Part shown: positions 521-14,950 of the stretch, piece by piece | Layout: every line of letters starts with the position of its first letter | Position numbering within the stretch: position 1 is the stretch's first letter | Assembly: GCA_020439025.1 (NCBI GenBank) | Contig: JAGQTO010000124.1 | Coordinates: 1 to 43,854, forward strand | Length of the DNA: 43,854 bases | Direction: 5' to 3' | DNA from: Mycobacterium sp. | GTDB lineage: Bacteria > Actinomycetota > Actinomycetes > Mycobacteriales > Mycobacteriaceae | The notes under the pieces: model-generated | What the model was told of the DNA's origin: nothing | Databases searched by the model: none | The model's input: the letters and a program-made list of their open reading frames with translations, nothing else | Program-made: the position numbers and the translations under genes

Positions 521-606
521 GCTCGTCACTCCCCTACGTTGAGAACCGTAGGCCCGCCCCACTGGCTTGCCCAACACCTGGAGACGTTACCGCTGAGCAC
601 CGACAT
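521..606 (-). promoter_or_regulatory. Cassette leader 1 (RecA-NDp type promoter plus stem-loop)
   Basis: On the minus strand ATGTCGGTG (598-606), exactly 8 nt, then TAACGT (584-589) match the RecA-NDp consensus TTGTCRGTG-N8-TANNNT. A GC-rich hairpin follows at about 551-572, less well paired than in the other copies, then the ribosome site GGGGAG. The promoter overlaps the last codons of the gene ending at 587. Confidence 0.75.
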
Positions 607-1315
607 CACCGGGCTCGACGTCGGGGTCAGGCCACACCAGCAGGTTGGACGCGACGACATCGAGGTACTGCGCCGTGGCGTCTGCCTCGCTGGTCGCCCG
701 AAACGTCGAGGTCTCCCCCGTCATCAGGCTCCGCACGCCAAAGAGCCGGCGGTTGTCGTCCCAGCCAGCGCCGCGGTAATGCGCCCCAGGCGGTGCGTCC
801 GTCTCGGGATCGCCGTCGTAGACGGTCCCATCGTTGATGAAGACCCGCACCCGACCGGTGGTCTCGGTGGTGTCGATCTGCACGACGTGCGCGGCGTCGA
901 GGTCGCTGACGAACCCGCTCACCGTCACCGCGTCGTCCTGGTCCTCAGGGCCGCCGTCGAGCACCAGCGCAGCCAAGCGCTGCGCGCAGTCCAGTAGGTC
1001 CTCGACGATGCCGAAGTCCTCGGCATCAGTAGCCGCAGCGTGCCGCCACTGCGCCAGCACGCGCCGCGTCCGCAGTGCCTCGTAGCGCCGCGCCACCGAG
1101 GGCCTGACAGGGCGCAACTCAGCGGCAAGAAACCGCGCCTCTATGCCGTCCAGGGCGCCCGTGGTGGCCTCAATCCGCCGGACGTCGCGCAGAGCACCCT
1201 GAGCCGCCACAACGCGGTACAGCGGCCCGTCTAGGCGTCCGCTGCGCAGATCCTCCACGGCCTCGACGGATGCGCCGACCGGCAAGGCCGCAGAGTCCAC
1301 CTCAGCCCCACTCAT
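587..1315 (-). CDS. Hypothetical protein, third gene of its cassette
   Basis: This is a 242-residue acidic protein that I do not recognise. The N-terminal half looks helical and rich in Ala, Arg and Glu. The C-terminal half has a V-x-V-F-I-N-D-G-T-V-Y-D-G-D pattern suggestive of beta strands. Its ATG lies inside the end of the preceding gene (14-nt overlap), so it is probably translated by coupling in a three-gene operon driven from the leader at 1988-2068. Its stop codon (587-589) lies within the promoter of the next cassette, with no terminator between. Confidence 0.6.
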   Translation of the reverse strand: MSGAEVDSAALPVGASVEAVEDLRSGRLDGPLYRVVAAQGALRDVRRIEATTGALDGIEARFLAAELRPVRPSVARRYEALRTRRVLAQWRHAAATDAEDFGIVEDLLDCAQRLAALVLDGGPEDQDDAVTVSGFVSDLDAAHVVQIDTTETTGRVRVFINDGTVYDGDPETDAPPGAHYRGAGWDDNRRLFGVRSLMTGETSTFRATSEADATAQYLDVVASNLLVWPDPDVEPGDVGAQR

Positions 1316-1547
1316 TGCTCAGCCCCACCAGCTCGGGATACTCCGGGCAGGCCAGCACCGTCACCGTGTACAGCGATCCGAGGTCGCTGCCCTCACCCGC
1401 GCCGTGGCCGTCGCCGGTGTAGTCAAACAGGTGGTCCCACAGATTCGCTTCGCCACGGAACCGGTCCAGCGTCACCGTATGGGTCTGCTCGGACTCGTGG
1501 CCGTCGCTGTAGGTGTTCTCCACCTTGATCGTCAGGTTCAGCGCCAT
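1302..1547 (-). CDS. Hypothetical protein, second gene of its cassette
   Basis: This is an 81-residue acidic protein without a recognised family. It starts with alternating hydrophobic residues (L-N-L-T-I-K-V-E) that suggest a beta strand, and contains a Gly/Asp-rich stretch near residues 45-57. Its ATG overlaps the stop of the upstream gene by one base (TGATG), a strong sign of translational coupling. The downstream gene overlaps its 3' end by 14 nt. Confidence 0.6.
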   Translation of the reverse strand: MALNLTIKVENTYSDGHESEQTHTVTLDRFRGEANLWDHLFDYTGDGHGAGEGSDLGSLYTVTVLACPEYPELVGLSNEWG

Positions 1548-1987
1548 CAGTGAGCCCCGCCCACGTGCGCGGCCAACGACTGCCCACGCGCCACAATCTC
1601 GGCCGAGAGCGCCACCAGGCGCTCCAACTCGTCGAGCTGCTCGACCGACAGCCCCGCGCTGCTCTCCCCGTCACCGCCCAGGAACACCGCGACCCCGAAG
1701 ATCGGCTGACGCAGCGGAGCCGTCCGGCTCGCGATCATCGTCGCGACCGGATTCACCGCGGCGGTCACCGCGGCCCGGTCGTTGAGGTCCAGGAACACCA
1801 GCGCCTCCTCATCGAGCCACAGATCCAACCCACCGGCCAGGCGCACCAGCTGCACCACCTGGCACCCGATCTGCTCGCACAGCATCCCGATCGGACTGCC
1901 GTACTGGTCGACCGTCAGCGGCACCCGCCGCGCCGACCCGTCCTTGTCCACCCGCAGCCCCACCGGCGCATTCTCGACAACGCTCAC
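1547..1987 (-). CDS. Hypothetical protein, first gene of its cassette
   Basis: This is a 146-residue protein of unknown function. It begins M-S-V-V-E-N-A-P-V-G-L and is rich in Val, Leu and Asp, probably a compact cytoplasmic alpha/beta protein. I placed the start at the GTG at 1985-1987 because the ribosome site GGGAAGGGGA sits a few bases upstream inside the cassette leader. Reading frames that extend further upstream run through the promoter. It is the first of three overlapping genes. Confidence 0.6.
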   Translation of the reverse strand: MSVVENAPVGLRVDKDGSARRVPLTVDQYGSPIGMLCEQIGCQVVQLVRLAGGLDLWLDEEALVFLDLNDRAAVTAAVNPVATMIASRTAPLRQPIFGVAVFLGGDGESSAGLSVEQLDELERLVALSAEIVARGQSLAAHVGGAH

Positions 1988-2068
1988 CACATTCCCCTTC
2001 CCTGGGAACCGTGGGCCGACCCGACTGGCCTGCCCAACACCTATGACTCTACCGCCGAGCACCGACAT
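1988..2068 (-). promoter_or_regulatory. Cassette leader 2
   Basis: ATGTCGGTG (2060-2068), 8 nt, TAGAGT (2046-2051) on the minus strand match the RecA-NDp promoter. The stem-loop runs 2012-2036: TGGGCAGGCC, a 5-nt loop, GGTCGGCCCA, with one G-U pair and the conserved A/G mismatch. GGGAAGGGGA then precedes the GTG start at 1987. Confidence 0.85.
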
Positions 2069-2108
2069 CCAGAAGCACCAAACCCGCACCGCCGCAGCGC
2101 ATGTACCT

Positions 2109-2145
2109 ACCACCACCCCGCCCCTGTGCCGGGTGGGGTGGTGGT
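2109..2145 (-). terminator. Cassette-family terminator hairpin
   Basis: CACCACCCCGCCC pairs with GGGTGGGGTGGTG across a short loop containing the TGTGCC seen in the other cassette terminators. It lies between the ArdC-like gene and the next leader. Confidence 0.6.
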
Positions 2146-2171
2146 GGTGCGCGCGGCGGGGAGACGCCAGC

Positions 2172-2203
2172 GCCCGCCTGGCGACGGGGATCGCCAGGCG
2201 GGC
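2172..2203 (-). terminator. Second hairpin after the ArdC-like gene
   Basis: A 13-bp perfect stem (2172-2184 with 2191-2203) and a 6-nt loop lie about 80 bp past the stop of the ArdC-like gene. With the hairpin at 2109-2145 it forms a double termination region. Confidence 0.5.
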
Positions 2204-2285
2204 ACCGCGATGACGGACCGCCAGGCGCAGCTGCCGGAGGGGAAGTGTTGGGGAACTCTCCGGCGCGCGCCCAGCGGTCCGCGGC

Positions 2286-3125
2286 TTATGAGGCGATCGC
2301 CTCGCCGGCCTCCTCGGCGAGGTCGGCGTCGGCGAGCGTTCGGCCGGCCCTGAGGATCTTGTCCACCGCGGTGAACACGGCCCGGATGTGGGCATCGGTG
2401 ACTTGCTCATCCCCCAGCCAGTGCTGGATGTAGGCGCGCGACTCCGCCGGCGCCCACTCGCTCAACTCGAGGTTGTGTGCCAGCAGGTACGCCGCCGCCT
2501 CGGCCTGGAACTCGGCGATACCGCGGCTGCAGGGGCTCTCGCCCTCAGCGCTGTCGGTGGTATGTCCGAGCATCACGTGGCCCAGCTCGTGAAAGAAGGT
2601 TTTCATCGGGTATTTCGCGACCGGGCTCACCGCCACGTTCCGGGCGAACGAGTAGCCCTGGCAGTTGCCGTCGATCGACGCGTAGGGCACCTGCGTGATG
2701 TCCAGTGCGGCCAGTGCGCGTTGCGCGTCCCACTCGGGTAGCTCAGGCCATTCCACCTCCGGGCCGACAGTGTTGCTGTAGGGGAAGGTCGAGCGCTTCA
2801 ACCTGAACCGCATTGCCACGACGACCTTTTCGCCGCTCTCCTCGTCGGTCTTGCGGATCGGCCGCGGATGCAGCACCGCGCGGCCGCCACCCTTGACCGG
2901 GATTCGGCCCAGGGCCTTCCAGACGCTGAACGGTGCGCACGGTTCCGTGACGCCCTGCGACCACAGCAGGATCTGGTTTTGCAGCGAGTATTGGTAGAAC
3001 CGGCAGTAGGTGTCTCCGAGGTGGCCCGGCATCGTCATTGCCTGTTCGAGCAGCTGGCGCCAGTCGACCTGGCCGTCCTCGTCGACGGCCGCCGGCGACA
3101 CGCGTTCGATCGTTGCTGCAGTCAT
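2286..3125 (-). CDS. ardC: ArdC-like antirestriction protein with metallopeptidase domain
   Basis: This 279-residue protein looks like the ArdC family: an N-terminal ssDNA-binding domain (about residues 20-115; N-Q-I-L-L-W near 50 and F-S-V-W-K-A-L-G-R near 66 are typical) followed by a zinc metallopeptidase domain with H-E-L-G-H at 179-183 and a downstream acidic helix (E-F-Q-A-E-A near 205-210). ArdC proteins protect incoming plasmid DNA from restriction during conjugation. The ATG at 3125 has GGAAGGGGA upstream at the end of the cassette leader. It is alone in its cassette, with its own promoter (3183-3205) and terminators. The family assignment is firm; the exact antirestriction activity is inferred. 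Confidence 0.8.
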   Translation of the reverse strand: MTAATIERVSPAAVDEDGQVDWRQLLEQAMTMPGHLGDTYCRFYQYSLQNQILLWSQGVTEPCAPFSVWKALGRIPVKGGGRAVLHPRPIRKTDEESGEKVVVAMRFRLKRSTFPYSNTVGPEVEWPELPEWDAQRALAALDITQVPYASIDGNCQGYSFARNVAVSPVAKYPMKTFFHELGHVMLGHTTDSAEGESPCSRGIAEFQAEAAAYLLAHNLELSEWAPAESRAYIQHWLGDEQVTDAHIRAVFTAVDKILRAGRTLADADLAEEAGEAIAS

Positions 3126-3205
3126 GACAGTCCCCTTCCGGGATTTCGGGGCCGGCCCCAACTGGCCTGCCCTACATCGAGAACACTACCGACCCCCACC
3201 GACAA
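3126..3205 (-). promoter_or_regulatory. Cassette leader 3 (ArdC-like gene)
   Basis: TTGTCGGTG (3197-3205), 8 nt, TAGTGT (3183-3188) is a perfect match to the RecA-NDp consensus. The stem-loop at 3149-3172 is GGGCAGGCC / GGCCGGCCC, paired except for the conserved A/G mismatch. GGAAGGGGA precedes the ATG. Confidence 0.88.
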
Positions 3206-3322
3206 GTTCTCTCGATGCAGCGATAAGACCCCTTATCACTCGGCGGAGTTGCGCCCAAGTGCTCACACCGGATGTGCTGTCTAGCAACAATTCACACCGC
3301 AGATAGATGGGCTTTCCAAGCC

Positions 3323-3682: not shown

Positions 3683-3689
3683 GAACACC

Positions 3690-3722
3690 CAGCACCCCAC
3701 CCCTGTGCCGAGGTGGGCAGGT
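3690..3722. terminator. Degenerate cassette-family hairpin
   Basis: It has the family layout (CACCCCACCCCTGTGCC then GGTGGG) but only about 6 clean base pairs. It lies between two converging genes (3323-3682 right, 3773-4429 left) and may serve both. Confidence 0.35.
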
Positions 3723-3772
3723 GGGTAGTGCGACCTGGTGGCCAGCCCTTCAGCCGGCCACCAGGTCAGCCC

Positions 3773-4429
3773 TCAGGCCTCCTCGATGTCCACGACGTCG
3801 TGGTCCTGGATCGCGTCGGCCACCATCCGCGCGCCCAGACCCTGAACCGCATCGGCCACCATCTCGTCGGTGACCTCACCGCCCGCGGCTTCAGCGTTGC
3901 GCCCGGACGCCGGGATCCGCACCCGAACCGTCACGTCCACCACGCACATGTACTCGCGCGACCGCGGCCGCAACCCCTGCTCCATCATGAAATCGTCGAA
4001 GCGCTCACACAGGCTGTTCTCATCGGCGTACTCATGCGCCGCATCCACGATGTTCTCCACGCGCCGCTGCAGCGCCGTCAGCGCCGAACGCGTCGCCTCC
4101 GCCTCACCGCGCGCCCGCCGAGCCGCCCAGAACGAACCAGCCAGCGCCGGAGCCCACGCCGGCATCTCCCCTTCGGTTGGTACCGGATCGCCGGCCACCT
4201 TGACCTCCGACAGCGCGCCGGCCGACACCACCGAGCATCCATCGAGCCTGACGATCGCGCACTGACGCTGCGCCCCCGCCGCCGCGGTCTCCTCGACGAC
4301 CAGCCAGCCCGGCACCGGCCCATCAGCCAGGGACGCGCACACCACCGCGCCGGCCGATACCCCGCCCTCCAATGCCTCAGACACCGAACGCGACACCACA
4401 CCCACCGAACCCTCAACCACAGCAGTCAC
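3773..4429 (-). CDS. Hypothetical cassette protein
   Basis: This is a 218-residue acidic protein of unknown function. The N-terminal third is Val/Ala/Gly rich. A helical middle (about 95-145, many Arg, Glu and Ala) is followed by C-E-R-F-D-D-F-M-M-E-Q-G-L and a beta-like M-C-V-V-D-V-T-V-R-V-R-I-P stretch, ending in an acidic tail. The GTG start at 4429 is fixed by GGAAGGGGA just upstream. It is a single-gene cassette with its own leader. Confidence 0.6.
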   Translation of the reverse strand: MTAVVEGSVGVVSRSVSEALEGGVSAGAVVCASLADGPVPGWLVVEETAAAGAQRQCAIVRLDGCSVVSAGALSEVKVAGDPVPTEGEMPAWAPALAGSFWAARRARGEAEATRSALTALQRRVENIVDAAHEYADENSLCERFDDFMMEQGLRPRSREYMCVVDVTVRVRIPASGRNAEAAGGEVTDEMVADAVQGLGARMVADAIQDHDVVDIEEA

Positions 4430-4509
4430 GACATTCCCCTTCCTGGGAACCGTGGGCCGGTCCGACTGACCTGCCCTACACCCGTGATTCTACCGAGCGC
4501 CACCGACAA
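4430..4509 (-). promoter_or_regulatory. Cassette leader 4
   Basis: TTGTCGGTG (4501-4509), 8 nt, TAGAAT (4487-4492). The stem-loop at 4454-4476 is GGGCAGGTC / GACCGGCCC, a compensatory change relative to GGCC/GGCC in leader 3, with the A/G mismatch kept. GGAAGGGGA follows. Confidence 0.88.
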
Positions 4510-4639: not shown

Positions 4640-5605
4640 CTACACCGACACCGCAGGGGGCAGCCCCGCAGTCAGCCCCCGGATCGCCTCGGGCCGCACC
4701 CCGCTCTGCAGCGCGGTGTCGAGCAGCTCGGCCATGCGGTGGGTCGGGTCCTCGGCCTGGACAGCTTCCAGGCACACCCCCGCCAGCGGCCCCTCACCCC
4801 GCACGTAGGCCGCATGCGACTTCAAGACCAGCGCCTCCGAGCGGAACGGCTGGGGCAGCACCTGCACCAGCTGCGACCACAGCTGATCGGCCGCCCCTGC
4901 CTCCTCGCAGTCGATCAGCGTCATCAGCGCATCACGCACCCGCAGATCCACCAGCATCGCGCCGACGGCCGCCAGCTCGACATCCGAGAGCACCGCCCCC
5001 TCACCCACGCGCCGCACCAGCGCCACCGCCGCACGGACCGCCGCAACCACGTCCTCGACGGGACCACCGGCACCGGCCAGCAGGGGCTCCAGCACCGCAG
5101 CCCGCGCCACGTCCACGGCCACCGTCGCCTTCAACTCCTCACGGCTGCCGTACAGCCGAAGACCCGCCACCACCGCAGCAGCCGCCGCCGCCGACGTCGC
5201 GGGATCATCGACGATCCCGCCCTTGCCGCAGTTGTCGACGCAACGCCAACGCCCGCCCGCCTCGATCCGATCGACCACCACCGCATCGAGCAACTGCGCA
5301 CCGCGCCGCTCCAGCGCCGCCGACAGTTGGCGCGCCTGCTCACCGAACTCGACCGCGCACATCGCACACGACGCGTTCTCAGCCGACACGAACACCGCCA
5401 CCGCGCCCTGAGCACCACCGCCCACGACCAGATCGGCCAACCGCTCCGGTGCATCCGGCGACGCCGCGTCGCTGAGGTCCAGGCGCATCACGCAACCCGC
5501 CTCACCGTCCTGCACCGCCACCACCACCAGGGACTCGACCGGACGAAAACCCAGCACCCCCAACAGGTTCGAGATAACGGCTCCCAGTGCCTTGATTGCG
5601 TGCAT
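4640..5605 (-). CDS. DUF4192-like protein
   Basis: This 321-residue protein resembles the actinobacterial DUF4192 family: near the N terminus I-S-N-L-L-G-V-L-G-F-R-P-V-E-S-L-V-V-V matches the family opening (a L-L-G-F-x-P-x-x-S-L-V-V pattern), then a M-R-L-D-L motif, an A-V-F-V strand and a later G-R-W-R-C-V-D-N-C segment matching the family's G-R-W-W/R-S-x-x-C region. The molecular function is not established. The ATG at 5605 follows GGAAGGGGA. It is a single-gene cassette with its own leader and terminator. Shorter overlapping frames on both strands are shadows. Confidence 0.65.
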   Translation of the reverse strand: MHAIKALGAVISNLLGVLGFRPVESLVVVAVQDGEAGCVMRLDLSDAASPDAPERLADLVVGGGAQGAVAVFVSAENASCAMCAVEFGEQARQLSAALERRGAQLLDAVVVDRIEAGGRWRCVDNCGKGGIVDDPATSAAAAAAVVAGLRLYGSREELKATVAVDVARAAVLEPLLAGAGGPVEDVVAAVRAAVALVRRVGEGAVLSDVELAAVGAMLVDLRVRDALMTLIDCEEAGAADQLWSQLVQVLPQPFRSEALVLKSHAAYVRGEGPLAGVCLEAVQAEDPTHRMAELLDTALQSGVRPEAIRGLTAGLPPAVSV

Positions 5606-5684
5606 TGCACTCCCCTTCCGGGAATCGAGGGCCGGTCCCACTGACCTGCCCAACAACGTGAAGCCTATCCGACACCACCGACAA
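5606..5684 (-). promoter_or_regulatory. Cassette leader 5
   Basis: TTGTCGGTG (5676-5684), 8 nt, TAGGCT (5662-5667). The stem-loop at 5629-5651 is GGGCAGGTC / GACCGGCCC. GGAAGGGGA precedes the ATG at 5605. Confidence 0.88.
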
Positions 5685-5833: not shown

Positions 5834-6076
5834 CTACCAGCCGTCCTCATCCCAGGACTCCCCGGCATACGCGGGATCGAAGTCACTCGGAGCGTGCTCG
5901 GGATACCGCCGGCGGATCTCATCCATCCGCGGCTGGACCCGCTCGACGTAAGCGTCATAGTGCCCATCGCAGCGGAAGTAAGCGTCCCCACTCCCACTCA
6001 GCGTCGAGCGCGCGAACGTCTCCCCCGTGCAGCCTTCCGGCCCGTCCAGGCAATCCCCATCGCCACAGACCGCCAT
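5834..6076 (-). CDS. Small Cys-containing acidic protein
   Basis: This is an 80-residue protein with Cys at positions 4, 9 and 16 in a Gly/Asp-rich start (C-G-D-G-D-C-L-D) and another Cys in R-C-D-G-H-Y. The end, Y-P-x-x-A-P-S-D-F-D-P-A-Y-A-G-E-x-W-D-E-D, resembles small proteins I recall from mycobacteriophages and other actinobacterial mobile elements. Function is unknown; a metal-binding role is a guess. The ATG at 6076 follows GGAAGGGGA. It forms a single-gene cassette. Confidence 0.6.
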   Translation of the reverse strand: MAVCGDGDCLDGPEGCTGETFARSTLSGSGDAYFRCDGHYDAYVERVQPRMDEIRRRYPEHAPSDFDPAYAGESWDEDGW

Positions 6077-6152
6077 GATGTTCCCCTTCCGAAACTGAGC
6101 CCGCCCCAACGACTTGCTCGACACCCCCGACACTACCGGGCACCACTGACAA
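6077..6152 (-). promoter_or_regulatory. Cassette leader 6
   Basis: TTGTCAGTG (6144-6152), 8 nt, TAGTGT (6130-6135): the A variant of the R position. The stem-loop base is GAGC / GCTC (6097-6100 with 6116-6119), a compensatory change from GGGC/GCCC, though the upper stem pairs less well. GGAAGGGGA follows. Confidence 0.82.
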
Positions 6153-6249: not shown

Positions 6250-7563
6250 TCAGAGCGCGGCCAGCACCGCCCGTGCGTGCACAGCTTGCGGGTTGTCGGT
6301 GGCAGCGTCCAGCAGCGGCGCGGTCGCCGGATCGGTGAGGATCGTCAGGTGCGCGCGGTGCCGACTCAGCGTCACGCACATGCGGCCCGCGTCGAGGGCG
6401 AATGACTCCGCGCTGCGGTACCCGGCCATCGGGTGCAGGGCCACGACGGCGGGCCGCTCCAAGCCTTGCAGCGCGTTGACAGTGCCGATCAGCACATCGG
6501 GCATATCGGCCAGCAGCGCCCGCACGGCCCCGGCTTGGGCGACGTGGGGCACCACCACGGCTATGTCGCGTGCGGTCAACGCCTCGCGCACACCGCCGCG
6601 CCGGTAGTCGTGCCACGTCAGTTCGCGCACCCGCTCGGCCAGCGCCGTCAGCAGCGCCGGATCGGTCGGGCCGTTGCGCGCTTCGATGGGGCGGTTGACG
6701 ATTTCGGGTAGCACCGTGCCATCCGGTGCGATCACGGACTCGTCGGGGCGGCGCGACGTGAACGGCATCTGCGGGTAGAAGTGCGCCGACACCAGCGCGC
6801 AGGTCTGCGGTCCGAGTCGCCATGAGTTCGTCAGTTCGTGCACGGTGACCGCCTCACCGTGCGCGGCCAGCAGCGCAGCCGGGGCAGGTTGATGCGGCCC
6901 GGTGGCCTGCCCCTCCCACTTCTCGGTCGAGCCGGTCACCACCGGAGACACCTGGCCGGGATCACCGACGCAGACCACTTGGCGAGCCAGCGCACCGAGG
7001 GCACCCAGGTCGCCGTACGTGCACTGCCACGCCTCATCGACCAGCAGCACGTCGGCCCCGGCCAGGTTGGGATCAACGTAGAGCCAGCGTGCGGCGGTGC
7101 CGATCAGGATTTCGCCTCCCGTCGAGTGCTGCCATCGCACGCTGCGGCCCGCCACGGTGCGAATGCCGTCCACGGTGACTGGCTTCTTACCCGCCCCCGA
7201 CACGATCAGCGAGGAACGGTCACTGACAGCGGCGATGCGCCGGGACAGCTCGGCGGCTTGCTCGCGGGTCTGCGCGGCGACCGCCACCCGCAGTCCCACC
7301 CGATGCGCCAGCGCACCGGCCAGCAGCGCCACCAGGCGACTCTTGCCCGCGCCGGGACACGCGGGAACGCAGATCGCAGCGTCACCGCCCCACGCGGCCA
7401 GCAGCACCCGCGCCAGCATCGGCGTGTCCAATAGGTCACGCCCTGGCCAGTCCTCGGCCATCGGCGCGGCGGTCGGCAACGCCGGGGTCGCCGGTACCGC
7501 AGCGGGCACAGCAGCATCGTCGGCGGCGGCACTCGCAGTGAATCGCTTGGGCAGGGTACGCAT
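6250..7563 (-). CDS. Superfamily 1 (Upf1-like) helicase
   Basis: This is a 437-residue helicase with a low-complexity Ala/Pro N terminus. Motifs visible in order: I (P-G-A-G-K-S, 71-75), II (L-V-D-E-A-W, about 174-179), III (V-G-D-P-G-Q, 199-204), IV (N-S-W-R-L), V (G-T-V-N-A-L-Q-G) and VI (T-L-S-R-H-R, about 398-403). This is the order of SF1B/DNA2-Upf1 type nucleic-acid translocases. It is the last gene of a coupled operon with an unknown protein, a vWA-metallopeptidase and a MoxR ATPase. Start ATG at 7563, two bases from the preceding stop. The helicase fold is clear; substrate and direction are unknown. Confidence 0.75.
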   Translation of the reverse strand: MRTLPKRFTASAAADDAAVPAAVPATPALPTAAPMAEDWPGRDLLDTPMLARVLLAAWGGDAAICVPACPGAGKSRLVALLAGALAHRVGLRVAVAAQTREQAAELSRRIAAVSDRSSLIVSGAGKKPVTVDGIRTVAGRSVRWQHSTGGEILIGTAARWLYVDPNLAGADVLLVDEAWQCTYGDLGALGALARQVVCVGDPGQVSPVVTGSTEKWEGQATGPHQPAPAALLAAHGEAVTVHELTNSWRLGPQTCALVSAHFYPQMPFTSRRPDESVIAPDGTVLPEIVNRPIEARNGPTDPALLTALAERVRELTWHDYRRGGVREALTARDIAVVVPHVAQAGAVRALLADMPDVLIGTVNALQGLERPAVVALHPMAGYRSAESFALDAGRMCVTLSRHRAHLTILTDPATAPLLDAATDNPQAVHARAVLAAL

Positions 7564-7564
7564 C

Positions 7565-8779: not shown

Positions 8780-8976
8780 GCGGCACCATCGCGGCTCTGT
8801 GCGACCTCACTCAACCCGCGAGCGGCGGCGGCGAACCCATCGGCCAGCGCCGCCGTCGCCAGATCGGACCACCCTCGTTGTGCAGCGGCACGCACCGTGC
8901 CCGCCGTCCAGCCGGTGCCTGACAGCACCGACTCGGCCCACTGCGCGAAGTCACCTGCCCCGGCCCGCTTGCTCAC
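8776..8976 (-). CDS. Small helical protein, coupled
   Basis: This is a 66-residue, Ala-rich and probably helical protein beginning M-S-K-R-A-G-A-G-D-F-A-Q-W. I placed its start at GTG 8976 because it overlaps the stop of the upstream gene as GTGA, the same arrangement used at every other junction in this operon. The downstream gene starts at its own stop in the same way. No homologue is recognised; it may bridge the vWA protein and the next gene product. Confidence 0.55.
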   Translation of the reverse strand: MSKRAGAGDFAQWAESVLSGTGWTAGTVRAAAQRGWSDLATAALADGFAAAARGLSEVAQSRDGAA

Positions 8977-10238
8977 GCCGCCACCGCCGCTGCGGGAGTG
9001 ACGCGCACCGTCTTGGCCCACGCGGGAGCGGTGTCGGCGGCGTGCGTGCCGATCAGCGCCACGATCAGCGGCACCGGCAGCCGACGCTCGGGCCAGGGTG
9101 TCCCGCCATCAGTGAACGCCACGATCACGTTGGCCGCTGGCCGCGCCGCGAGCGCGGCGTCGATACCGACCCGCAGATCGGTGCCACCGCCTCCGGTCAG
9201 GACAACATCGCTGATCGACCGCACGGGGCGCGGCGCGCTTGCCGCAGCATCGCAGCACAACACCCGCACCGTGGCGCCGGTGCGCCGCAACACCGCCCGT
9301 GTCTCCGACAGCGCCGCCGCCAGATCGGCTTCCCCCATCGACCCCGACGTGTCAATGATCAGATCGACCGCGATCTTCGGTGCCCGCAGCGTCGGCAGCA
9401 GCACACCCTTGGGAGCGCGCCGGTTGGGCCGTCGCCAGGAGTGGTGCACCTGGCCCGCCTGGTCCTCGACGGCGCGGCGCACCGCCGCGCGCAGCACCTT
9501 CGGCCACGGCACGACAGCCGGGGCGAGTTGAGCAGCCGCCCACCGCGCCAGGCCCGCAGGCATGCTCCCGCGACCCGCCCCGCCGTGCGCCAACTCCCGT
9601 TGAACCTCACGGGCGACGGCGACTTTCACCAGATCGGCAGCCGCACGGGACAGCCCCTTGCTGCCTCCCACGTCGGCAGCGGCGGGCAGTTCCCCCGGCA
9701 CCGCATCCCCGGCACCGGACCCGCAGCCATAGCCGTCATCCTCGCCGTCACCGGGATCACCGTCAGCCCCGGTGGGCGGCGCATCGGGAGGCACCAGGTG
9801 CCGGTAGTAGACCTCGGCGGCGTGACCGTCCTCGCAGCCCAGCCCTGCCGGTGTCACCACACCCGCTGGCAGACGCACCCCCGCCGCGATCAGGTCATCG
9901 TTGATTTCAGCGTCAGCGGCGTAGTTCCACATGGTGCGGTCCACCGGAGAGGCCACCGTCTCGGCGCGGCCACCGTGATCCCGCAGCACATGCCCGACCT
10001 CGTGCAGCAAAACGGCCCCTGACGTTGCAATGCTCCACCCGTCATCGGTGCCCAACATCGCCGGATCGACATACAGCCGCCAATACTTGTCCACCGCAAA
10101 CGTTTTCAAACCGGGTGCCGCCACCGGCGACAACGCGAACAACGCCCGCGCGAAGTACGGCATCGCCTCGACTGCGGCCATCCGCGCCAGTCGCAGCCGC
10201 CGCCACTCATCGGCAGTGAGCGCCCTGACCTCGGTCAC
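8973..10238 (-). CDS. Metallopeptidase-vWA fusion protein
   Basis: This 421-residue protein carries two halves. The N-terminal part has a zinc-protease signature H-E-V-G-H at 79-83 with an acidic candidate ligand in D-A-E-I-N-D-D near 109-115. The C-terminal part is a von Willebrand A-like domain with an intact MIDAS: D-T-S-G-S at 296-300, G-G-G-G-T-D-L and F-T-D-G-G. This is the DUF2201-type layout (putative metallopeptidase N domain plus vWA-like domain). An acidic Gly-rich linker (about 155-180) separates them. The GTG start at 10238 overlaps the preceding MoxR gene as GTGA; a longer frame upstream is not needed. Confidence 0.75.
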   Translation of the reverse strand: MTEVRALTADEWRRLRLARMAAVEAMPYFARALFALSPVAAPGLKTFAVDKYWRLYVDPAMLGTDDGWSIATSGAVLLHEVGHVLRDHGGRAETVASPVDRTMWNYAADAEINDDLIAAGVRLPAGVVTPAGLGCEDGHAAEVYYRHLVPPDAPPTGADGDPGDGEDDGYGCGSGAGDAVPGELPAAADVGGSKGLSRAAADLVKVAVAREVQRELAHGGAGRGSMPAGLARWAAAQLAPAVVPWPKVLRAAVRRAVEDQAGQVHHSWRRPNRRAPKGVLLPTLRAPKIAVDLIIDTSGSMGEADLAAALSETRAVLRRTGATVRVLCCDAAASAPRPVRSISDVVLTGGGGTDLRVGIDAALAARPAANVIVAFTDGGTPWPERRLPVPLIVALIGTHAADTAPAWAKTVRVTPAAAVAA

Positions 10239-11341
10239 GCTGCACTCCCCACGTCGAGGCCCGCCGCAATCATCACGTCTTTGAATTTGCGCGCCGCCGC
10301 AGGCGGTTTCGCACCAGCAGGCATCGCCACGCTCAAAGAACGCGCCGCTGCCCCCGCCACATCGGGAGCACCGTGGGTCGCAGCCTCGACCAGCGGACCC
10401 CACGCGGTCATCCACGCATCCTTGGTGCCCTTGCCCGACGCCCACGCGACCACACCGGACAACACCGCCCACACCTGATCGGGGCGGGCCGTCGCCCACT
10501 CAACAATGCTCGGGTCCGCGATCACGTCCGCGACGGCGGGTAGGTCCATGCTGGCCCGCCATTCCATGAACTCACTGCCCGCGCCGTCACCCACCAGGCC
10601 CAACGCGACCGTGCTGATCGCAGCGGTGTCATCGCGGCGCAGATGCGCCAACACCCGCGCCATCGCCTCCCAGGAGCGCCGCGACGGCCACGCCCGCCCT
10701 GCGGCCTCGTCAGTGTCGGGGTAAGCGTGCAGCAGGCCGGGGCGCGCTTCGATGAAGGCACAAACAGCGCCGATTTCGTCGGCGCGGCGCAGATCGTCGG
10801 CGGCGATGCCCCGCGAGGCGGGCAACGTGGCGAACGACGACCGCATGCCGGTCAGCCATTCCTCAGCAGTCGGCTCGAAATCCACGTGCAGGAAACGGTT
10901 CGCCATCGGCGGCGTCAGATCGACACCACCAGCACTGCGGTCGGGAGGATTGGCAGCGGCCACGATCCGAACCTCATCAGGCAGCTTGGTTCGTCCGACC
11001 ACCCGCTCCAACGCCACCGTCAGCATCGCGGCCTGCACCGACGCCGAGCACGTCGAAATCTCGTCCAGCAGCAGATACCCGCCCTTGGCGTCCAAAAGTG
11101 TTCGCGCCCAATCAGGCAACGCCAACGTCTGCACCGCACCATCGGTGACCACCGGCCATCCCGCAATGTCCACAGGCTCACGCTGCGACCCGATCACCGT
11201 CTCCACCGGCACACCATCGGCAGCGGCCAACGCCCGCACGATGGATGACTTGCCCGTGCCGGGATCGCTCCACAACAACACCGGCACATGAGCGCGGGCC
11301 GCAGCATCAATCACCGTCACGGTCGTGTCCAAATCGGTCAT
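10235..11341 (-). CDS. MoxR-type AAA+ ATPase
   Basis: This is a 368-residue AAA+ ATPase: Walker A D-P-G-T-G-K-S-S at 26-33, Walker B Y-L-L-L-D-E-I-S at 89-96, sensor A-A-A-N-P-P and M-A-N-R-F-L following. The combination with a vWA protein encoded immediately downstream is the classic MoxR-vWA partnership, in which the ATPase remodels a target through the vWA adaptor. It is the first gene of a five-gene operon with a cassette leader (11342-11425), ATG at 11341. Target unknown. Confidence 0.78.
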   Translation of the reverse strand: MTDLDTTVTVIDAAARAHVPVLLWSDPGTGKSSIVRALAAADGVPVETVIGSQREPVDIAGWPVVTDGAVQTLALPDWARTLLDAKGGYLLLDEISTCSASVQAAMLTVALERVVGRTKLPDEVRIVAAANPPDRSAGGVDLTPPMANRFLHVDFEPTAEEWLTGMRSSFATLPASRGIAADDLRRADEIGAVCAFIEARPGLLHAYPDTDEAAGRAWPSRRSWEAMARVLAHLRRDDTAAISTVALGLVGDGAGSEFMEWRASMDLPAVADVIADPSIVEWATARPDQVWAVLSGVVAWASGKGTKDAWMTAWGPLVEAATHGAPDVAGAAARSLSVAMPAGAKPPAAARKFKDVMIAAGLDVGSAA

Positions 11342-11425
11342 AGCCGAATCCCCTCCCGAGGAGTAGCGGACCGGCCCCGATGGCCCGTCCTCACATCACA
11401 GGACACTACCGCTGCCCACCGACAA
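11342..11425 (-). promoter_or_regulatory. Cassette leader 7 (MoxR/vWA/helicase operon)
   Basis: TTGTCGGTG (11417-11425), 8 nt, TAGTGT (11403-11408). The stem-loop at 11368-11390 is GGACGGGCC / GGCCGGTCC, so the base changed from GGGC/GCCC to GGAC/GTCC with pairing kept and a G/G mismatch at the usual site. The ribosome site GGGAGGGGA precedes the ATG. Confidence 0.85.
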
Positions 11426-11549: not shown

Positions 11550-11939
11550 CTACCCTCGGTCCCCCTCGGCCGCGATCGCACCGAGAGGACCGGCCACCTC
11601 CCACTCCCGCTTCGGAACCTCGTAGACATGCAGCCCGCCGCGATGGCTGGACTCCCAGAACCGCAGGTGAAACATCGACCCGACGAGGGACTCGATGAGC
11701 TGCTCGTTGCCGCTCCAACCGCCCGTCACCAGCGAAACCCGCACAACCGTCCGCAACTGGCCGTCCAGCCACTCATCCACCGTCATCAGCGTCGGTGTCC
11801 ACCACATCTGCTCCAGCAGGTCCACCAGCGCAGCAGGCGAGCCGTGGAAACCCCGCACAGCGGCGATCCCCCACTCAGTGGGGTATCCACCATCATCAAC
11901 CAGAGCGCTGTCACCCGCACTGGCGCTGCCCGCGCTCAC
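11550..11939 (-). CDS. Small protein of the G-G-W-S-G-N-E type, unknown function
   Basis: This is a 129-residue protein. The segment V-T-G-G-W-S-G-N-E-x-L-I followed by F-x-L-R-F-W-E-S-S-x-R-G-G resembles a small family I recall from actinobacterial phages and plasmids, without known function. The GTG at 11939 overlaps the stop of the upstream gene as GTGA. The N-terminal W-G-I-A-A-V-R-G-F and W-W-T-P-T-L-M-T segments are also aromatic-rich. Second gene of a two-gene cassette. Confidence 0.6.
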   Translation of the reverse strand: MSAGSASAGDSALVDDGGYPTEWGIAAVRGFHGSPAALVDLLEQMWWTPTLMTVDEWLDGQLRTVVRVSLVTGGWSGNEQLIESLVGSMFHLRFWESSHRGGLHVYEVPKREWEVAGPLGAIAAEGDRG

Positions 11940-12202
11940 GCCGGGATTCCCAGGTCGTAATCGGCCCACAGATCGCTGGCGTGCTCCACGGCGGCGTCCT
12001 CCAACGCCTCGGCCGCCGCCTCCGATTCCAGCCACGCAATCTGATCCTCAACTTCCGCGATCTCCATCCGCAGTGTCGCGGCGTGCGCCGAATTGAACGC
12101 GATCGGCAACTCGGCCTGCGTGCGCGCCAACACCATCCGCGCCTCATCGAGGCTCAACAACTCGACATCAACCGGCTCGACATCATCAACGTAGACGACC
12201 AT
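11936..12202 (-). CDS. Small acidic helical protein
   Basis: This is an 88-residue protein with a short beta-like start (M-V-V-Y-V-D-D) and a long, probably coiled-coil helix (about 25-75, heptad-like Leu/Ala/Ile with many Glu). Unknown function. The ATG at 12202 follows the cassette leader; its ribosome site (GGAGGTTGGGA) is less typical than in the other cassettes. It is coupled (GTGA) to the downstream gene. Confidence 0.58.
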   Translation of the reverse strand: MVVYVDDVEPVDVELLSLDEARMVLARTQAELPIAFNSAHAATLRMEIAEVEDQIAWLESEAAAEALEDAAVEHASDLWADYDLGIPA

Positions 12203-12280
12203 TCCCAACCTCCGGGGTGAGTGGGCCGGCCCCCAACGGCCTGCCCGTACATTGACGACCCTACCAACAGCCACCGACAA
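12203..12280 (-). promoter_or_regulatory. Cassette leader 8
   Basis: TTGTCGGTG (12272-12280), 8 nt, TAGGGT (12258-12263). The stem-loop at 12223-12246 is GGGCAGGCC / GGCCGGCCC with the A/G mismatch. Confidence 0.87.
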
Positions 12281-12317
12281 CAACCGCTCCCGAATCACCT
12301 GCACGACAACGGAATAG

Positions 12318-12358
12318 ACACCACCACCCCATCCCTGTGCCGGGTGGGGTGGTGGTGT
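12318..12358 (-). terminator. Cassette-family terminator hairpin
   Basis: ACACCACCACCCCATCC pairs with GGGTGGGGTGGTGGTGT across a short loop with TGTGCC; one mismatch. It follows the DUF4262-like gene. Confidence 0.6.
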
Positions 12359-12405
12359 GTGCCAGGCCAGACCCAACACACACCACCTGTCGCGCAGAAG
12401 GCTTC

Positions 12406-13224
12406 TCAGAGCTGCCCGAATATCTCATCGCGGTAGTAGCCGTCTGAAGACGCGACCGCCTGCTCCCATTCGACGCCGAGCGCATCGAACAGATGCCGTA
12501 AGTCCGACAACAGGTCGGTCGCCGCCGTAGCGACGTCCTCAGTCAGGCTGGATCCGCCCAGGTGCTCGGCGTAGGCAACCAGCGCCCGCGCCGCCCAGCC
12601 AGCGCGAATATCGTTGTCGCGCTGCGGGTCAGAGCCATCACCGACCACGACGCTTTTCCGCGGCTGCTCAGCGATCAGATCGGCCAATTCCTGCGCCGTC
12701 GACGCCGCCACCCGCTGCGCGTGATACACCGGCCGCGCCTGCGGCGGGCGCCCACGCAGCGGCTGCTGCGCGTCCCCGATGCGCGATCCGGCTTCCCACG
12801 GCAACACCCCGTCGGCATCCGGCCACACCACCTGCACCGCCGCCGCGACCGCGCCGTAGCACTCCCTCACCAGATTCAGATCCCGCGCATCGGTCATCTC
12901 GACCGCCACCAGCGCCACATCGTCGACCAGGACCCCCTCGATCCGATCGCCGGTAGCCAACCCCTGGCCTGCGGCCACCATCCGGCGGGCCACCTGGTTG
13001 AGCACGCTGTGCGCCACCTGGCCCGGCAGCCCGTAGATCGCCAGTTCCGGCAGCGACTGCGCCGACAGACCCACCGTGTAGGCGAACGACGGACCCTGAT
13101 CCCCAGCCGTCGGAAACACCGCCAAGACCGTCCACCCATGCTCAGCGACCTTGGCTCGCGTCTCGGCCAACACCGCCGCGCGCGCCTCCGACGCCGATCC
13201 CCGCCGCGAATCCTCATGCCCCAT
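12406..13224 (-). CDS. DUF4262-like protein
   Basis: This 272-residue protein has the opening of the DUF4262 family: H-G-W-T-V-L-A-V near residues 34-41, then P-S-F-A-Y-T-V-G-L and L-P-E-L-A-I-Y-G-L-P shortly after, the patterns by which the family is recognised. The C-terminal half is helical with a G-Y-Y-R-D-E-I end and no recognised domain. Biochemical function is not known. The ATG at 13224 follows GGAAGGGGC. It forms a single-gene cassette with leader and terminator. Confidence 0.68.
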   Translation of the reverse strand: MGHEDSRRGSASEARAAVLAETRAKVAEHGWTVLAVFPTAGDQGPSFAYTVGLSAQSLPELAIYGLPGQVAHSVLNQVARRMVAAGQGLATGDRIEGVLVDDVALVAVEMTDARDLNLVRECYGAVAAAVQVVWPDADGVLPWEAGSRIGDAQQPLRGRPPQARPVYHAQRVAASTAQELADLIAEQPRKSVVVGDGSDPQRDNDIRAGWAARALVAYAEHLGGSSLTEDVATAATDLLSDLRHLFDALGVEWEQAVASSDGYYRDEIFGQL

Positions 13225-13306
13225 GTCCAACGCCCCTTCCTGGGCTCAGTGGGCCAGCCCCTCTCGGCCTGCCCAACACCACGATCCTACAACCCAGCAC
13301 CGACAG
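13225..13306 (-). promoter_or_regulatory. Cassette leader 9
   Basis: CTGTCGGTG (13298-13306), 8 nt, TAGGAT (13284-13289). The stem-loop at 13251-13274 is GGGCAGGCC / GGCTGGCCC (one G-U pair, A/G mismatch kept). GGAAGGGGC follows. Confidence 0.84.
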
Positions 13307-13342
13307 CCGATCCTTCCAAATACACTCCATCGCAGCGTCTTT

Positions 13343-13382
13343 AGACACCCACTCCCCACCCCGGTGCCGGGAGTGGGTGTCT
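13343..13382 (-). terminator. Cassette-family terminator hairpin, divergent
   Basis: A 14-bp stem (13343-13356 with 13369-13382); the loop contains its own CACC/GGTG pairing. It lies 17 bp past the phosphoesterase stop. Confidence 0.6.
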
Positions 13383-13399
13383 GGGTGTCGGCGGCGCGG

Positions 13400-14011
13400 T
13401 CAGAGGGTCACAACGCGAGCGCCGCGGACATACTCCACGCGGGTAGCTCCGTAGCGGGTGACCGGCACCCGCGGATAGGTGTGGCCGTGGATCAGCATCG
13501 TCGGCGACGTTCGGTCAACCCAGCGGCGCAGCGCCTCGATGCCTGCGTGGGCCTCATCACCGGGGTGATCGTTCACGCCAGCCGGCGGGCAGTGCGTCAC
13601 CAGCACGTCAGCTCGCGGCAGCTCGGCGAGCATGGCGCTGTACTCACTCTGGGTGTAGAGCGCATCGCGGGTGCCGTCCTTGTACCGCACGCACCCCTCA
13701 AGGCCCGTGAACCTGAGCCCGTTGAGTTCGACGCAGCGTAGGTGCAGGTTGGTCATCCGCAGATCGGCCAGATAGCGGCCATCGCAGTGATTCCCGTAGA
13801 CCCCGAGAGTGGGCACCGGCAGCTGATCAATGCCGGCGATGTCGGTTCGGTGGAGGTCGCCGGCGGTGATCACCAGATCGACGCCCTGGTCCTCAACGAC
13901 GTCGGCGAGAGCCCGATCGCCAAAGTCAGGTCTGACGTCAGCGATGACCAACATCGTCAGCCGCGGGGACACGACGCGTTCGGCGCTGTCGTTGAATTTC
14001 CGCCGAAACAC
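13400..14011 (-). CDS. Calcineurin-like metallophosphoesterase with altered metal site
   Basis: This is a 203-residue protein of the small metallophosphoesterase family. Motifs in order: an opening D-V-R where D-x-H is expected, G-D-L-H, G-N-H-C-D, T-H-C-P-P and H-G-H-T-Y-P. Two ligand positions thus differ from the canonical set (His to Arg in the first motif, final His to Tyr). Activity may be changed or lost, or the enzyme may use one metal. Start is GTG at 14011, 9 nt after the upstream gene; an internal ATG at M-L-V-I-A-D-V is an alternative. Second gene of the last cassette. Confidence 0.7.
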   Translation of the reverse strand: MFRRKFNDSAERVVSPRLTMLVIADVRPDFGDRALADVVEDQGVDLVITAGDLHRTDIAGIDQLPVPTLGVYGNHCDGRYLADLRMTNLHLRCVELNGLRFTGLEGCVRYKDGTRDALYTQSEYSAMLAELPRADVLVTHCPPAGVNDHPGDEAHAGIEALRRWVDRTSPTMLIHGHTYPRVPVTRYGATRVEYVRGARVVTL

Positions 14012-14020
14012 CTGCCAGGC

Positions 14021-14866
14021 CTAGTTATCGGCGACCAGGATCCGGGCCGAGCTGCCGGCGGCCTCGAGTTCGTGTGCCCGACGCGCGGCCGCCACGCGGT
14101 GCACGCGGCGCGGGTACACCAGGCCGTCGCGCTTGGTGCGGGCCTGCGGGTAGATCCGCTCGAACTCGGCCTGGTCGTCGACCATCACCACAACATTCAC
14201 ACCATTGACGTCGGTGACGTCGAGCTGGCCAGCGCTGCTGGTGATGAAGTCGTCGATGGCCTGCAGTTCGGCAATCAGCCCCGCCGGCGGCGCCGAGGTG
14301 CTTCGCTCGAACTTCGCGTATCGCTTCACGTCGATACCAAGCAGCCGGGCGGTCTCCTCTTTGAGCAATCCGGCCGCCAGCCGGCGCACGGTGAGATCTC
14401 CGCGCTGTTCACCGCGGTAGACCTCCACGTCGCGGCCGCGGCGGCTCAGCTCGGCAGCGGCGCGGCCGACCGCCACGTGCTGCAGCGACATCGGGTACGG
14501 AACGAGGTCGCGCAGTGTTCGCGCCTCCGGGTAGGCGTCCTCGAACTCCACCTGGTCGACGGCGGCCTCCAGGCGCACGGTGCCTTCGGCCGGCGCCGTG
14601 TTGAGCATCCTGGCGACGTCGCCGGCGATGAACTCCTCCATCGCGATCAACTCGTCGACGAGTTCGGCGCTGACTTCCAGGGCGCCGGTCTCGCGGGAAC
14701 GGTACTTGCGTAGATCCACCCGCAGCACCGGCACGAGGTCCTCGACCCGCAGGCTGAGCGCGTTGCGCCGCGCCAACAGGTCCGACCACAGGTACGGGGC
14801 CTCGTCGATGTCGTCCTCCTGGTCGTACATAGCGGCGGGCAACGTACCCGCCAGTCCGACACTCAT
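14021..14866 (-). CDS. Tandem HTH-like DNA-binding protein
   Basis: This 281-residue protein contains an internal duplication: two units of about 130 residues, each with a helical XRE-like block (first near 25-65, second near 165-210 with E-E-T-A-R-L-L-G-I-D-V-K-R-Y-A-K-F-E) followed by a E-F-E-x-x-Y-P-x-A-R-T-x-R-D segment and a closing V-A-x-x-R-A-A-E-L stretch. The helical block resembles an XRE/Cro-like fold, so DNA binding is likely, but the family is not named. The ATG at 14866 follows GGAAGGGAGAAGGG. It is transcribed with the phosphoesterase. Confidence 0.6.
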   Translation of the reverse strand: MSVGLAGTLPAAMYDQEDDIDEAPYLWSDLLARRNALSLRVEDLVPVLRVDLRKYRSRETGALEVSAELVDELIAMEEFIAGDVARMLNTAPAEGTVRLEAAVDQVEFEDAYPEARTLRDLVPYPMSLQHVAVGRAAAELSRRGRDVEVYRGEQRGDLTVRRLAAGLLKEETARLLGIDVKRYAKFERSTSAPPAGLIAELQAIDDFITSSAGQLDVTDVNGVNVVVMVDDQAEFERIYPQARTKRDGLVYPRRVHRVAAARRAHELEAAGSSARILVADN

Positions 14867-14950
14867 GATCCCTTCTCCCTTCCGGAGATGTCGGGCCGAC
14901 CCGTGTTGGCCTGCCCTTCCGTCCACGATGCTACTCCCGGCATCAGACGC
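14867..14950 (-). promoter_or_regulatory. Cassette leader 10 (degenerate activator site)
   Basis: TAGCAT (14928-14933) has the right -10 shape and spacing, but the upstream element GCGTCTGAT (14942-14950) matches TTGTCRGTG only at the central GTC and a few flanking bases. The stem-loop at 14893-14916 is well kept: GGGCAGGCC / GGTCGGCCC. This copy may respond weakly. Confidence 0.6.

What the first reader, a model, noticed from the sequence alone, without database searches (positions are those of the whole stretch)
521..14950. Ten cassettes share a RecA-NDp (PafBC-type) DNA-damage promoter
Ten left-reading units carry TTGTCRGTG, exactly 8 nt, then TANNNT (sites at 584-606, 2046-2068, 3183-3205, 4487-4509, 5662-5684, 6130-6152, 11403-11425, 12258-12280, 13284-13306 and a degenerate one at 14928-14950). 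This is the known consensus of the RecA-independent damage promoter of mycobacteria, activated by PafBC. The spacing is invariant while surrounding sequence varies. A plasmid placing an entire block of accessory genes under this host regulon would be a new form of plasmid control. The match is seen in the sequence; PafBC control is inferred.
Basis: partly seen in the sequence, partly recalled or inferred. Interest (0 to 1): 0.95.

Follow-up and report, generated by a model that had tools for sequence, protein, structure and literature searches.

The report
Damage-sensor promoters on linear plasmid arms
One end of a likely linear mycobacterial plasmid carries ten gene cassettes, nine of them behind the promoter motif that mycobacteria use for their DNA-damage response, so the plasmid would probably turn on these genes, some of them predicted to counter host defences, when the cell senses single-stranded DNA.

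Summary
The motif is real: nine of ten sites match TTGTCRGTG-N8-TANNNT with at most one mismatch (0.05 expected), all on one strand; the tenth is a conserved exception. (1) The window's left end matches both ends of related plasmids and the start of a second contig of the same assembly, so the block is the terminal arm of a likely linear plasmid. (2) Each promoter precedes a conserved, covarying hairpin leader with no Rfam match. (3) A model of that leader finds 111 copies in 18 of 396 same-genus genomes; in genomes outside the model set 53 of 59 carry the promoter (at most 2 mismatches). In six records 36 of 42 sites lie within 20 kb of an end (8 expected), 35 of 36 reading outward. First genes in the family include ArdC-like, DarB-like, DpdA and RIIA-like proteins. 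PafB/PafC are chromosomal; no WYL gene lies on a leader-bearing contig in eight genomes. Since ssDNA activates PafBC (published), the plasmid likely borrows the host's ssDNA sensor to express establishment and counter-defence genes on entry or attack. PafBC control, trigger and gene functions are inferred.

The parts
1..374 (.). Terminal inverted repeat (telomere-like, palindrome-rich); about 60-75 nt of the true end are missing from the contig
   Evidence: 89.9% identical over 376 nt to the start of contig C440 of the same assembly; matches both ends of NZ_CP126902 and NZ_CP097321 and the end repeat of NZ_CP015269 and of the 218-kb contig G277:C3, where 61-69 nt precede the homologous base
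365..520 (-). Unit 1 gene, 51-aa protein of unknown function
   Evidence: first ORF after leader; 4 members among 105 first ORFs
584..606 (-). Unit 1 RecA-NDp promoter, 1 mismatch; leader 521-583
587..1990 (-). Unit 2 operon: DUF3846-like (1547-1990), 81 aa (1302-1547), 242 aa (587-1315)
   Evidence: DUF3846 E 1.1e-5, just under the curated cut-off; 8 members of the first gene
2046..2068 (-). Unit 2 RecA-NDp promoter, 1 mismatch; leader 1984-2045
2286..3125 (-). Unit 3 gene: ArdC-like antirestriction protein with HELGH motif, 279 aa
   Evidence: relatives at 44-53% identity carry PF08401 and are named antirestriction protein ArdC; HELGH; no Pfam, NCBIfam, PADLOC or PDB match of its own
3183..3205 (-). 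Unit 3 RecA-NDp promoter, exact; leader 3121-3182
3773..4429 (-). Unit 4 gene, 218 aa, unknown
   Evidence: 5 members; no family match
4487..4509 (-). Unit 4 RecA-NDp promoter, exact; leader 4425-4486
4640..5605 (-). Unit 5 gene, DUF4192 protein, 321 aa
   Evidence: PF13830 E 7.8e-68; 11 members
5662..5684 (-). Unit 5 RecA-NDp promoter, exact; leader 5600-5661
5834..6076 (-). Unit 6 gene, 80 aa, unknown
   Evidence: 7 members
6130..6152 (-). Unit 6 RecA-NDp promoter, exact; leader 6068-6129
6250..11341 (-). Unit 7 operon: MoxR-like ATPase (10235-11341), VWA-like metallopeptidase DUF2201 (8973-10238), 404-aa protein (7565-8779), helicase-like AAA (6250-7563)
   Evidence: MoxR-like first gene has 10 members
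11403..11425 (-). Unit 7 RecA-NDp promoter, exact; leader 11341-11402 with compensatory GGAC/GTCC stem
11550..12202 (-). Unit 8: 88 aa (11936-12202) and 128 aa (11550-11936), unknown
12258..12280 (-). Unit 8 RecA-NDp promoter, exact; leader 12196-12257
12406..13224 (-). Unit 9 gene, DUF4262 protein
   Evidence: PF14081 E 1.4e-28
13284..13306 (-). Unit 9 RecA-NDp promoter, 1 mismatch; leader 13222-13283
13400..14866 (-). Unit 10: 281-aa protein with weak HTH_3 match (14021-14866) and metallophosphoesterase (13400-14011)
14928..14950 (-). Unit 10 promoter region, NOT RecA-NDp (5 mismatches); leader 14866-14927 kept
   Evidence: same GCGTC...GTAGCAT element before orthologous genes in G164, G255 and G270
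2110..2147 (-). Terminator-like inverted repeat CCACCCC..CCCGGCA..GGGGTGG; similar ones at 4549-4580, 5736-5765, 6189-6216, 11472-11506, 12321-12355
   Evidence: pattern search; no run of T, termination not tested

Best explanation
The left 15 kb of the window is the terminal arm of a likely linear mycobacterial plasmid, on which nine of ten outward-reading cassettes stand behind the host's RecA-NDp damage promoter, so that the host regulator PafBC would likely switch them on when single-stranded DNA is present. Shown: the motif, its fixed spacing, the end repeats, the position and direction of the cassettes, a shared structured leader in front of unrelated genes, and the host's own pafBC. Known from others: PafBC bound to a piece of ssDNA (6-12 nt tested) makes housekeeping RNA polymerase start at such promoters, and it can bind ssDNA gaps (PMC11804915). 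Inferred: when the plasmid enters a new cell, or when host nucleases cut it, ssDNA appears, PafBC is activated, and once the promoters are double-stranded the cassettes are transcribed in a burst; when the DNA is whole again the ssDNA goes and the burst ends. Inferred: the products help the plasmid to establish itself (ArdC-like antirestriction here; DarB-like, DpdA and RIIA-like proteins on other arms). Inferred: the leader's second hairpin covers the ribosome-binding site and limits translation in the uninduced state.
For: Nine near-exact sites against 0.05 expected. Spacing 37 at N8 against 1 at all other spacings. In genomes not used for the leader model, and not sisters of those used, 53 of 59 leaders have the promoter with at most 2 mismatches at the same place. 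Terminal repeats at the window's left end and at contig C440 of the same assembly. In six records 36 of 42 sites lie within 20 kb of an end (8.0 expected) and 35 of 36 read outward. On 20 loci whose end I assigned by hand 92 of 92 leaders read outward. 105 first genes fall in 24 sequence clusters, so promoter and leader are shared by unrelated genes. ArdC relatives, DarB-like E 7.5e-269, DpdA E 1.2e-121, RIIA-like E 9.3e-48. pafA-pafB-pafC in the host bin; in 8 of 8 leader-bearing genomes a pafB-pafC pair and 0 of 25 WYL genes on a leader-bearing contig. Same motif before an SbcD-like and a LysM/YneA-like gene on other contigs of the bin. No SOS box in the first 15 kb. Published: ssDNA activates PafBC; pafB/pafC mutants are poor recipients in M. 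smegmatis conjugation.
Against: No expression, binding or transfer data. Most cassette products have no known function, and in this window only the ArdC-like protein has a counter-defence family. The leader-bearing contigs have no TrwC relaxase and the transfer mode of such plasmids is unknown, so transfer as ssDNA is an assumption. The authors of PMC5656591 ascribe the recipient defect to RecA-dependent recombination. One of ten units lacks the motif. Two AP023334 sites have the motif but no leader, and the small linear plasmid pCLP has neither leader nor a site within 1 mismatch. Single-leader folding energies are only weakly below shuffles (mean z -0.8). The outward direction is also what replication from an internal origin would favour.
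Confidence: 0.6

Rival explanations
1. The promoters are PafBC-controlled, but the signal that matters is ordinary DNA damage to the host (antibiotics, oxidants), not plasmid entry; the cassettes are a stress or maintenance module that rides on the host's damage response, as SOS-controlled genes do on other mobile elements.
For: The same promoter serves chromosomal repair genes. DNA-handling products occur (ATP-dependent ligase with WGR, polynucleotide-kinase-like, clamp-like).
Against: Gene content leans to antirestriction and DNA modification rather than repair, and the placing on both terminal arms has no obvious reason under this view.
Confidence: 0.27
2. The element is read by something else: a plasmid regulator, ClgR (reported by others to recognise this promoter), or plain SigA in a constitutive way; PafBC is not decisive.
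For: ClgR was reported to bind the same promoter class (cited in PMC5656591). Unit 10 encodes an HTH-like protein with its own conserved promoter.
Against: The 11-nt distance between TTGTCR and TANNNT does not suit a SigA promoter (recalled), the 9-mer and 8-nt spacing are exactly the PafBC type, and no WYL gene lies on leader-bearing contigs.
Confidence: 0.08
3. The units are single-strand promoters of the Frpo/ssi kind: the entering strand folds into a hairpin that mimics a double-stranded promoter.
For: Leading-region logic fits (PMC11541004, passages); the leader forms hairpins.
Against: Folding the template strand of nine units as ssDNA gives no common duplex over the -26 and -10 elements (mean pairing 0.15-0.51 and 0.07-0.64); PafBC transcription needs a double-stranded promoter.
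Confidence: 0.04
4. Chance or assembly artefact.
For: The window is a contig of an 84%-complete metagenome bin, so plasmid and bin may not belong together.
Against: The same arm occurs in complete plasmids of cultured mycobacteria; shuffles give 0.05 sites.
Confidence: 0.01

Closest known systems
RecA-NDp / P1 promoters of the PafBC regulon (Gamulin 2004 consensus, as quoted in PMC5656591)
   Same: Same 9-mer, same 8-nt spacing, same TANNNT; same motif before repair-type genes elsewhere in this bin
   Different: Here on a mobile element, in a dense one-strand array, with a shared two-hairpin leader; other genes of the regulon are single chromosomal genes or operons
Anti-defence islands in plasmid leading regions with Frpo promoters (Samuel et al. 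2024, PMC11541004)
   Same: Array of short cassettes of one orientation at the plasmid part likely to matter first; antirestriction genes; a repeated promoter
   Different: Linear plasmid ends instead of oriT; no relaxase on leader-bearing contigs; double-stranded PafBC-type promoter instead of a folded ssDNA promoter; that paper has no mention of mycobacteria or actinobacteria (terms searched)
Giant linear plasmids of Mycobacterium avium (pS2b type; Yano et al. 2026, PMC12803027)
   Same: Mycobacterial invertron-like plasmid with terminal repeats, type VII secretion genes and no TraA relaxase
   Different: That paper does not mention promoters or DNA damage (0 occurrences of either term); I did not compare the pS2b sequences
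SOS/LexA-controlled genes on mobile elements
   Same: Mobile element hooked to a host damage sensor that responds to ssDNA
   Different: LexA is a repressor sensed through RecA; this motif belongs to the RecA-independent activator PafBC; no SOS box in the cassette block

Membership tests
RecA-NDp / PafBC promoter | TTGTCRGTG element | tested here: met
   6 of 10 exact, 3 of 10 with one mismatch, 1 of 10 fails
RecA-NDp / PafBC promoter | exactly 8 nt to TANNNT | tested here: met
   37 at N8, 1 at all other N from 2 to 19
RecA-NDp / PafBC promoter | host encodes PafB and PafC | tested here: met
   pafA-pafB-pafC on contig C39; PafB E 1.3e-113 and PafC E 4.8e-136 to solved chains including 7p5x
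RecA-NDp / PafBC promoter | PafBC-dependent, damage-induced transcription starting downstream of TANNNT | not testable with these tools
   needs reporter or RNA data
RecA-NDp / PafBC promoter (unit 10) | TTGTCRGTG element | tested here: not met
   five mismatches; conserved alternative element in three other genomes
Invertron-type linear plasmid | terminal inverted repeats | tested here: met
   window start and C440 start 89.9% over 376 nt; related complete contig G277:C3 92% over 255 nt at its two ends
Invertron-type linear plasmid | protein bound to 5' ends, linear in gels | not testable with these tools
   shown by others for M. avium pS2b-type plasmids (PMC12803027), not for this one
Leading-region anti-defence island | anti-defence genes in the region | tested here: met
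   ArdC-like here; DarB-like, DpdA, RIIA-like on other arms of the family
Leading-region anti-defence island | next to oriT, relaxase-driven entry | tested here: inconclusive
   0 of 30 TrwC matches in 18 leader-bearing genomes lie on leader-bearing contigs; no oriT was sought
Leading-region anti-defence island | Frpo-like single-strand promoter | tested here: not met
   no common fold over the promoter elements in nine units
LexA/SOS control | SOS box before the genes | tested here: not met
   none within 2 mismatches in 1-15000; one exact box at 26051-26066
Known RNA families | match at gathering score | tested here: not met
   0 matches in the window

The most novel reading that the evidence does not exclude
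A family of linear mycobacterial plasmids has turned the host's ssDNA sensor PafBC into an arrival alarm: both terminal arms are arrays of counter-defence cassettes under PafBC promoters with a dedicated structured leader RNA, fired when the incoming or attacked plasmid exposes ssDNA. It would be the actinobacterial answer to the Frpo-driven leading region, and a new regulon of PafBC that acts for the plasmid rather than the host.
Probability: 0.45. Interest if true: 0.9.

Novelty: new variant of a known kind. Interest (0 to 1): 0.78.

Why it matters
If true, it gives PafBC, whose ssDNA switch was solved only recently, a second regulon that belongs to mobile elements, and explains how relaxase-less linear plasmids could express antirestriction genes early. 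It makes directly testable how mycobacterial linear plasmids survive entry, and offers a marker (promoter plus leader) for finding their ends and their counter-defence genes, most of which are still unnamed families. The leader is a structured RNA without an Rfam entry that sits in front of 24 clusters of unrelated genes.

Tried and rejected
Chance: rejected by shuffles and by the spacing control. SOS/LexA: no box in the block. Frpo-like single-strand promoter: no common fold. A plasmid-borne WYL reader: none found on leader-bearing contigs in eight genomes. Phage origin: 4 viral contigs match promoter plus GGGCARG, 0 of 4 have the leader. PADLOC gave no strong defence family for ten proteins. 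The small linear plasmid pCLP was a negative: no leader, nearest site 2 mismatches. A plan to compare circular relaxase plasmids by EccD search found only three records, so the relaxase test was used instead. Rows dropped before counts: 12 pMYC1 leaders (near-copies of the window's) and two AP023334 sites without leader were left out of alignment A1; pMYC1 was left out of the end-distance test because its record ends are not telomeres; identical rows were merged by the tool.
Full report
Observation. The window is a whole contig (C369, 43,854 bases) of a 3.8-Mb, 449-contig bin, 84% complete. Six of the ten sites match TTGTCRGTG-N8-TANNNT exactly, three have one mismatch at the first T, and the tenth has five. 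Nine sites within one mismatch compare with a mean of 0.05 (maximum 1) in 200 dinucleotide shuffles of the window; all are on the minus strand of the first 13.3 kb. Over the window and six related plasmid loci the motif halves are 8 nt apart 37 times and any other distance from 2 to 19 once.

The published motif. A passage of PMC5656591 gives the consensus as tTGTCRgtg - 8 nt - TannnT and reports that induction of the recA P1 promoter is lost without pafBC (passages seen). Passages of PMC11804915 report that PafBC activates transcription with SigA polymerase when ssDNA is bound (6 to 12 nt tested), only at double-stranded promoters with its motif, and that it can bind ssDNA gaps. In this bin exact sites outside the window lie on C346 (30 nt before an SbcD-like exonuclease), C427 (before a LysM/YneA-like gene, with a lexA-like ORF, named by eye, on the other side), C401 (before a 76-aa ORF without a family) and C440. 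The SbcD and YneA matches are below the curated cut-offs. The bin has pafA-pafB-pafC on C39.

The block is a plasmid end. The window's first bases match, at 78-82% identity, both record ends of NZ_CP126902 and one or both ends of NZ_CP097321 and NZ_CP015269. The last two have repeats at their own two ends (595 of 595 nt for CP015269, a short 78% match for CP097321); NZ_CP025548 has a different end repeat of 114 nt; NZ_AP023334 showed none. Contig C440 of the same bin begins at the same base as the window (89.9% over 376 nt), so it is most simply the other arm. The 218-kb contig G277:C3 has 92% identical ends over 255 nt, with 61-69 nt more than the window. Linear topology is therefore likely; it was shown in gels for other mycobacterial plasmids (PMC12803027, section 3.2 read; PMC3250492, abstract read, which also reports conjugation of a linear plasmid between mycobacteria).

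Position and direction. In six records (five PLSDB records and G277:C3; pMYC1 left out) 36 of 42 sites lie within 20 kb of a record end, 8.0 expected if uniform, and 35 of the 36 read outward. Six sites are internal and one AP023334 site reads inward. Among leaders on contigs of at least 40 kb, 60 of 75 are within 20 kb of an end and 59 of 60 read outward. On 20 loci whose end I assigned by hand from repeats or record ends, 92 of 92 leaders read outward. A 19,109-base contig (G030:C67) with the same sequence at both ends carries exactly one promoter-leader at each end, both outward.

A structured leader. 52 leaders were aligned (chosen by their promoter, plus unit 10). One hairpin, GGGC.RGYC-loop-GRCC.GCCC, is paired in 91.8% of cells against 27-62% when slid; 26 cells have changes on both sides against at most 6 when slid; the count of pairs with double changes alone is not distinctive (48 of 500 shuffles reach it). 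The M. paragordonae copies keep the fold with different letters. On 125 model-fitted leaders helix 1 is 92.5% and helix 2 73.9% paired, 110 double-change cells against at most 33 when slid; this alignment leans to the model. Helix 2 would cover the GGGG of the ribosome-binding site. Against: minimum energies of single leaders are only slightly below shuffles (mean z -0.8; 19 of 52 below -1). Rfam has no match in the window.

Independent test. The leader model, which contains no promoter, was run on 396 same-genus genomes: 111 matches in 18 of them at E <= 1e-5. All 111 were examined: 54, 41 and 9 have the promoter with 0, 1 and 2 mismatches, 7 are worse. For the 59 matches in genomes neither used for the model nor sisters of those used, the numbers are 22, 24, 7 and 6. 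The worst match, G103, has no promoter and may be false. Three of the others are unit-10 orthologues: same leader, same gene (80-81% identity over 280 aa for two, 81% over a 63-aa piece for one), but GCGTC...GTAGCAT instead of RecA-NDp. So unit 10 is a conserved exception.

In eight leader-bearing genomes 25 WYL matches were found, with a tandem pafB-pafC-like pair in 8 of 8, and 0 of 25 on a leader-bearing contig. Exact sites on chromosomes are sparse: 4 to 18 in six genomes counted whole, against 7 on the 218-kb contig G277:C3 alone.

What is expressed. 105 first genes taken from 33 loci fall in 24 clusters. Largest: DUF4192 (11), ArdC-like (11), MoxR-like ATPase (10), DUF3846 (8). The ArdC-like protein of the window has no Pfam match of its own, but relatives at 44-53% carry PF08401, several named antirestriction protein ArdC, and it has HELGH. 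On C440, the likely other arm of this plasmid: DpdA (E 1.2e-121), a polynucleotide-kinase-like protein, and a clamp- or RusA-like protein. On other plasmids of the family: a 1574-aa DarB-like antirestriction protein (E 7.5e-269), a RIIA-like ATPase (E 9.3e-48), an ATP-dependent ligase with WGR. Antirestriction and RIIA roles are family annotations, not tests. Most of the window's own cassette proteins remain unnamed.

No relaxase. TrwC relaxases were found in 12 of 18 leader-bearing genomes, 30 matches, 0 on leader-bearing contigs, in line with the relaxase-less linear plasmids of PMC12803027. Many of these contigs are fragments, so absence is shown only for what is assembled.

Mechanism. The most economical reading is that the arms hold genes needed when the plasmid is new in a cell or under attack, and that PafBC, activated by ssDNA, is the switch. 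If a linear plasmid entered with its protein-capped 5' end first, the entering strand would be the template of all outward cassettes at either end, the same sense as in known leading regions; this is inference, as is ssDNA transfer itself. PMC5656591 (passages) notes that pafB/pafC mutants of M. smegmatis are poor recipients in conjugation; its authors ascribe this to lack of RecA-dependent recombination. The outward direction alone could also reflect co-direction with replication.

Print. No paper of the library holds both PafBC and 'linear plasmid'; 15 hold PafBC, plasmid and conjugat, listing seen, none titled on this; PMC12803027 does not use 'promoter' or 'DNA damage'. Subscription papers are not held, so this is not proof of absence.

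Noticed in passing
window 14928-14950; L089, L099, L101: Unit 10 has a conserved promoter of another kind (GCGTC...GTAGCAT, partly an inverted repeat) before a 281-aa protein with a weak HTH match; it may be the arm's own regulator.
   Followed up: partly
NZ_CP126902, NZ_CP015269, NZ_CP025548: Deposited as circular, but their record ends carry inverted repeats, so they are likely linear.
   Followed up: partly
NZ_CP015597 (pMYC1), about 232.8 kb and 2-7 kb: Two outward arms face each other across about 20 kb, with only nt 283-400 of the telomere left: perhaps a circularised or wrongly joined linear plasmid.
   Followed up: partly
window 17728-20442: A four-gene group with a RAMP-superfamily protein (18843-19712, PF03787) is conserved on all six related plasmids read; no CRISPR array was sought.
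   Followed up: no
window 20946-26275: Conserved operon (two HTH-like proteins, a 1058-aa protein without Pfam match, a Fis-like protein), close to an end in M. chimaera; a candidate for telomere upkeep. An exact SOS box lies at 26051-26066 near its start.
   Followed up: no
G002:C1:427055-427249: A telomere-like stretch (74% over the 192-nt query) inside a single-contig 4.0-Mb genome, perhaps an integrated linear plasmid.
   Followed up: no
G030:C67 (L047), 19,109 bases: Looks like a complete small linear plasmid with one promoter-leader 285 bases from each end, each before an ORF that runs off the end.
   Followed up: partly
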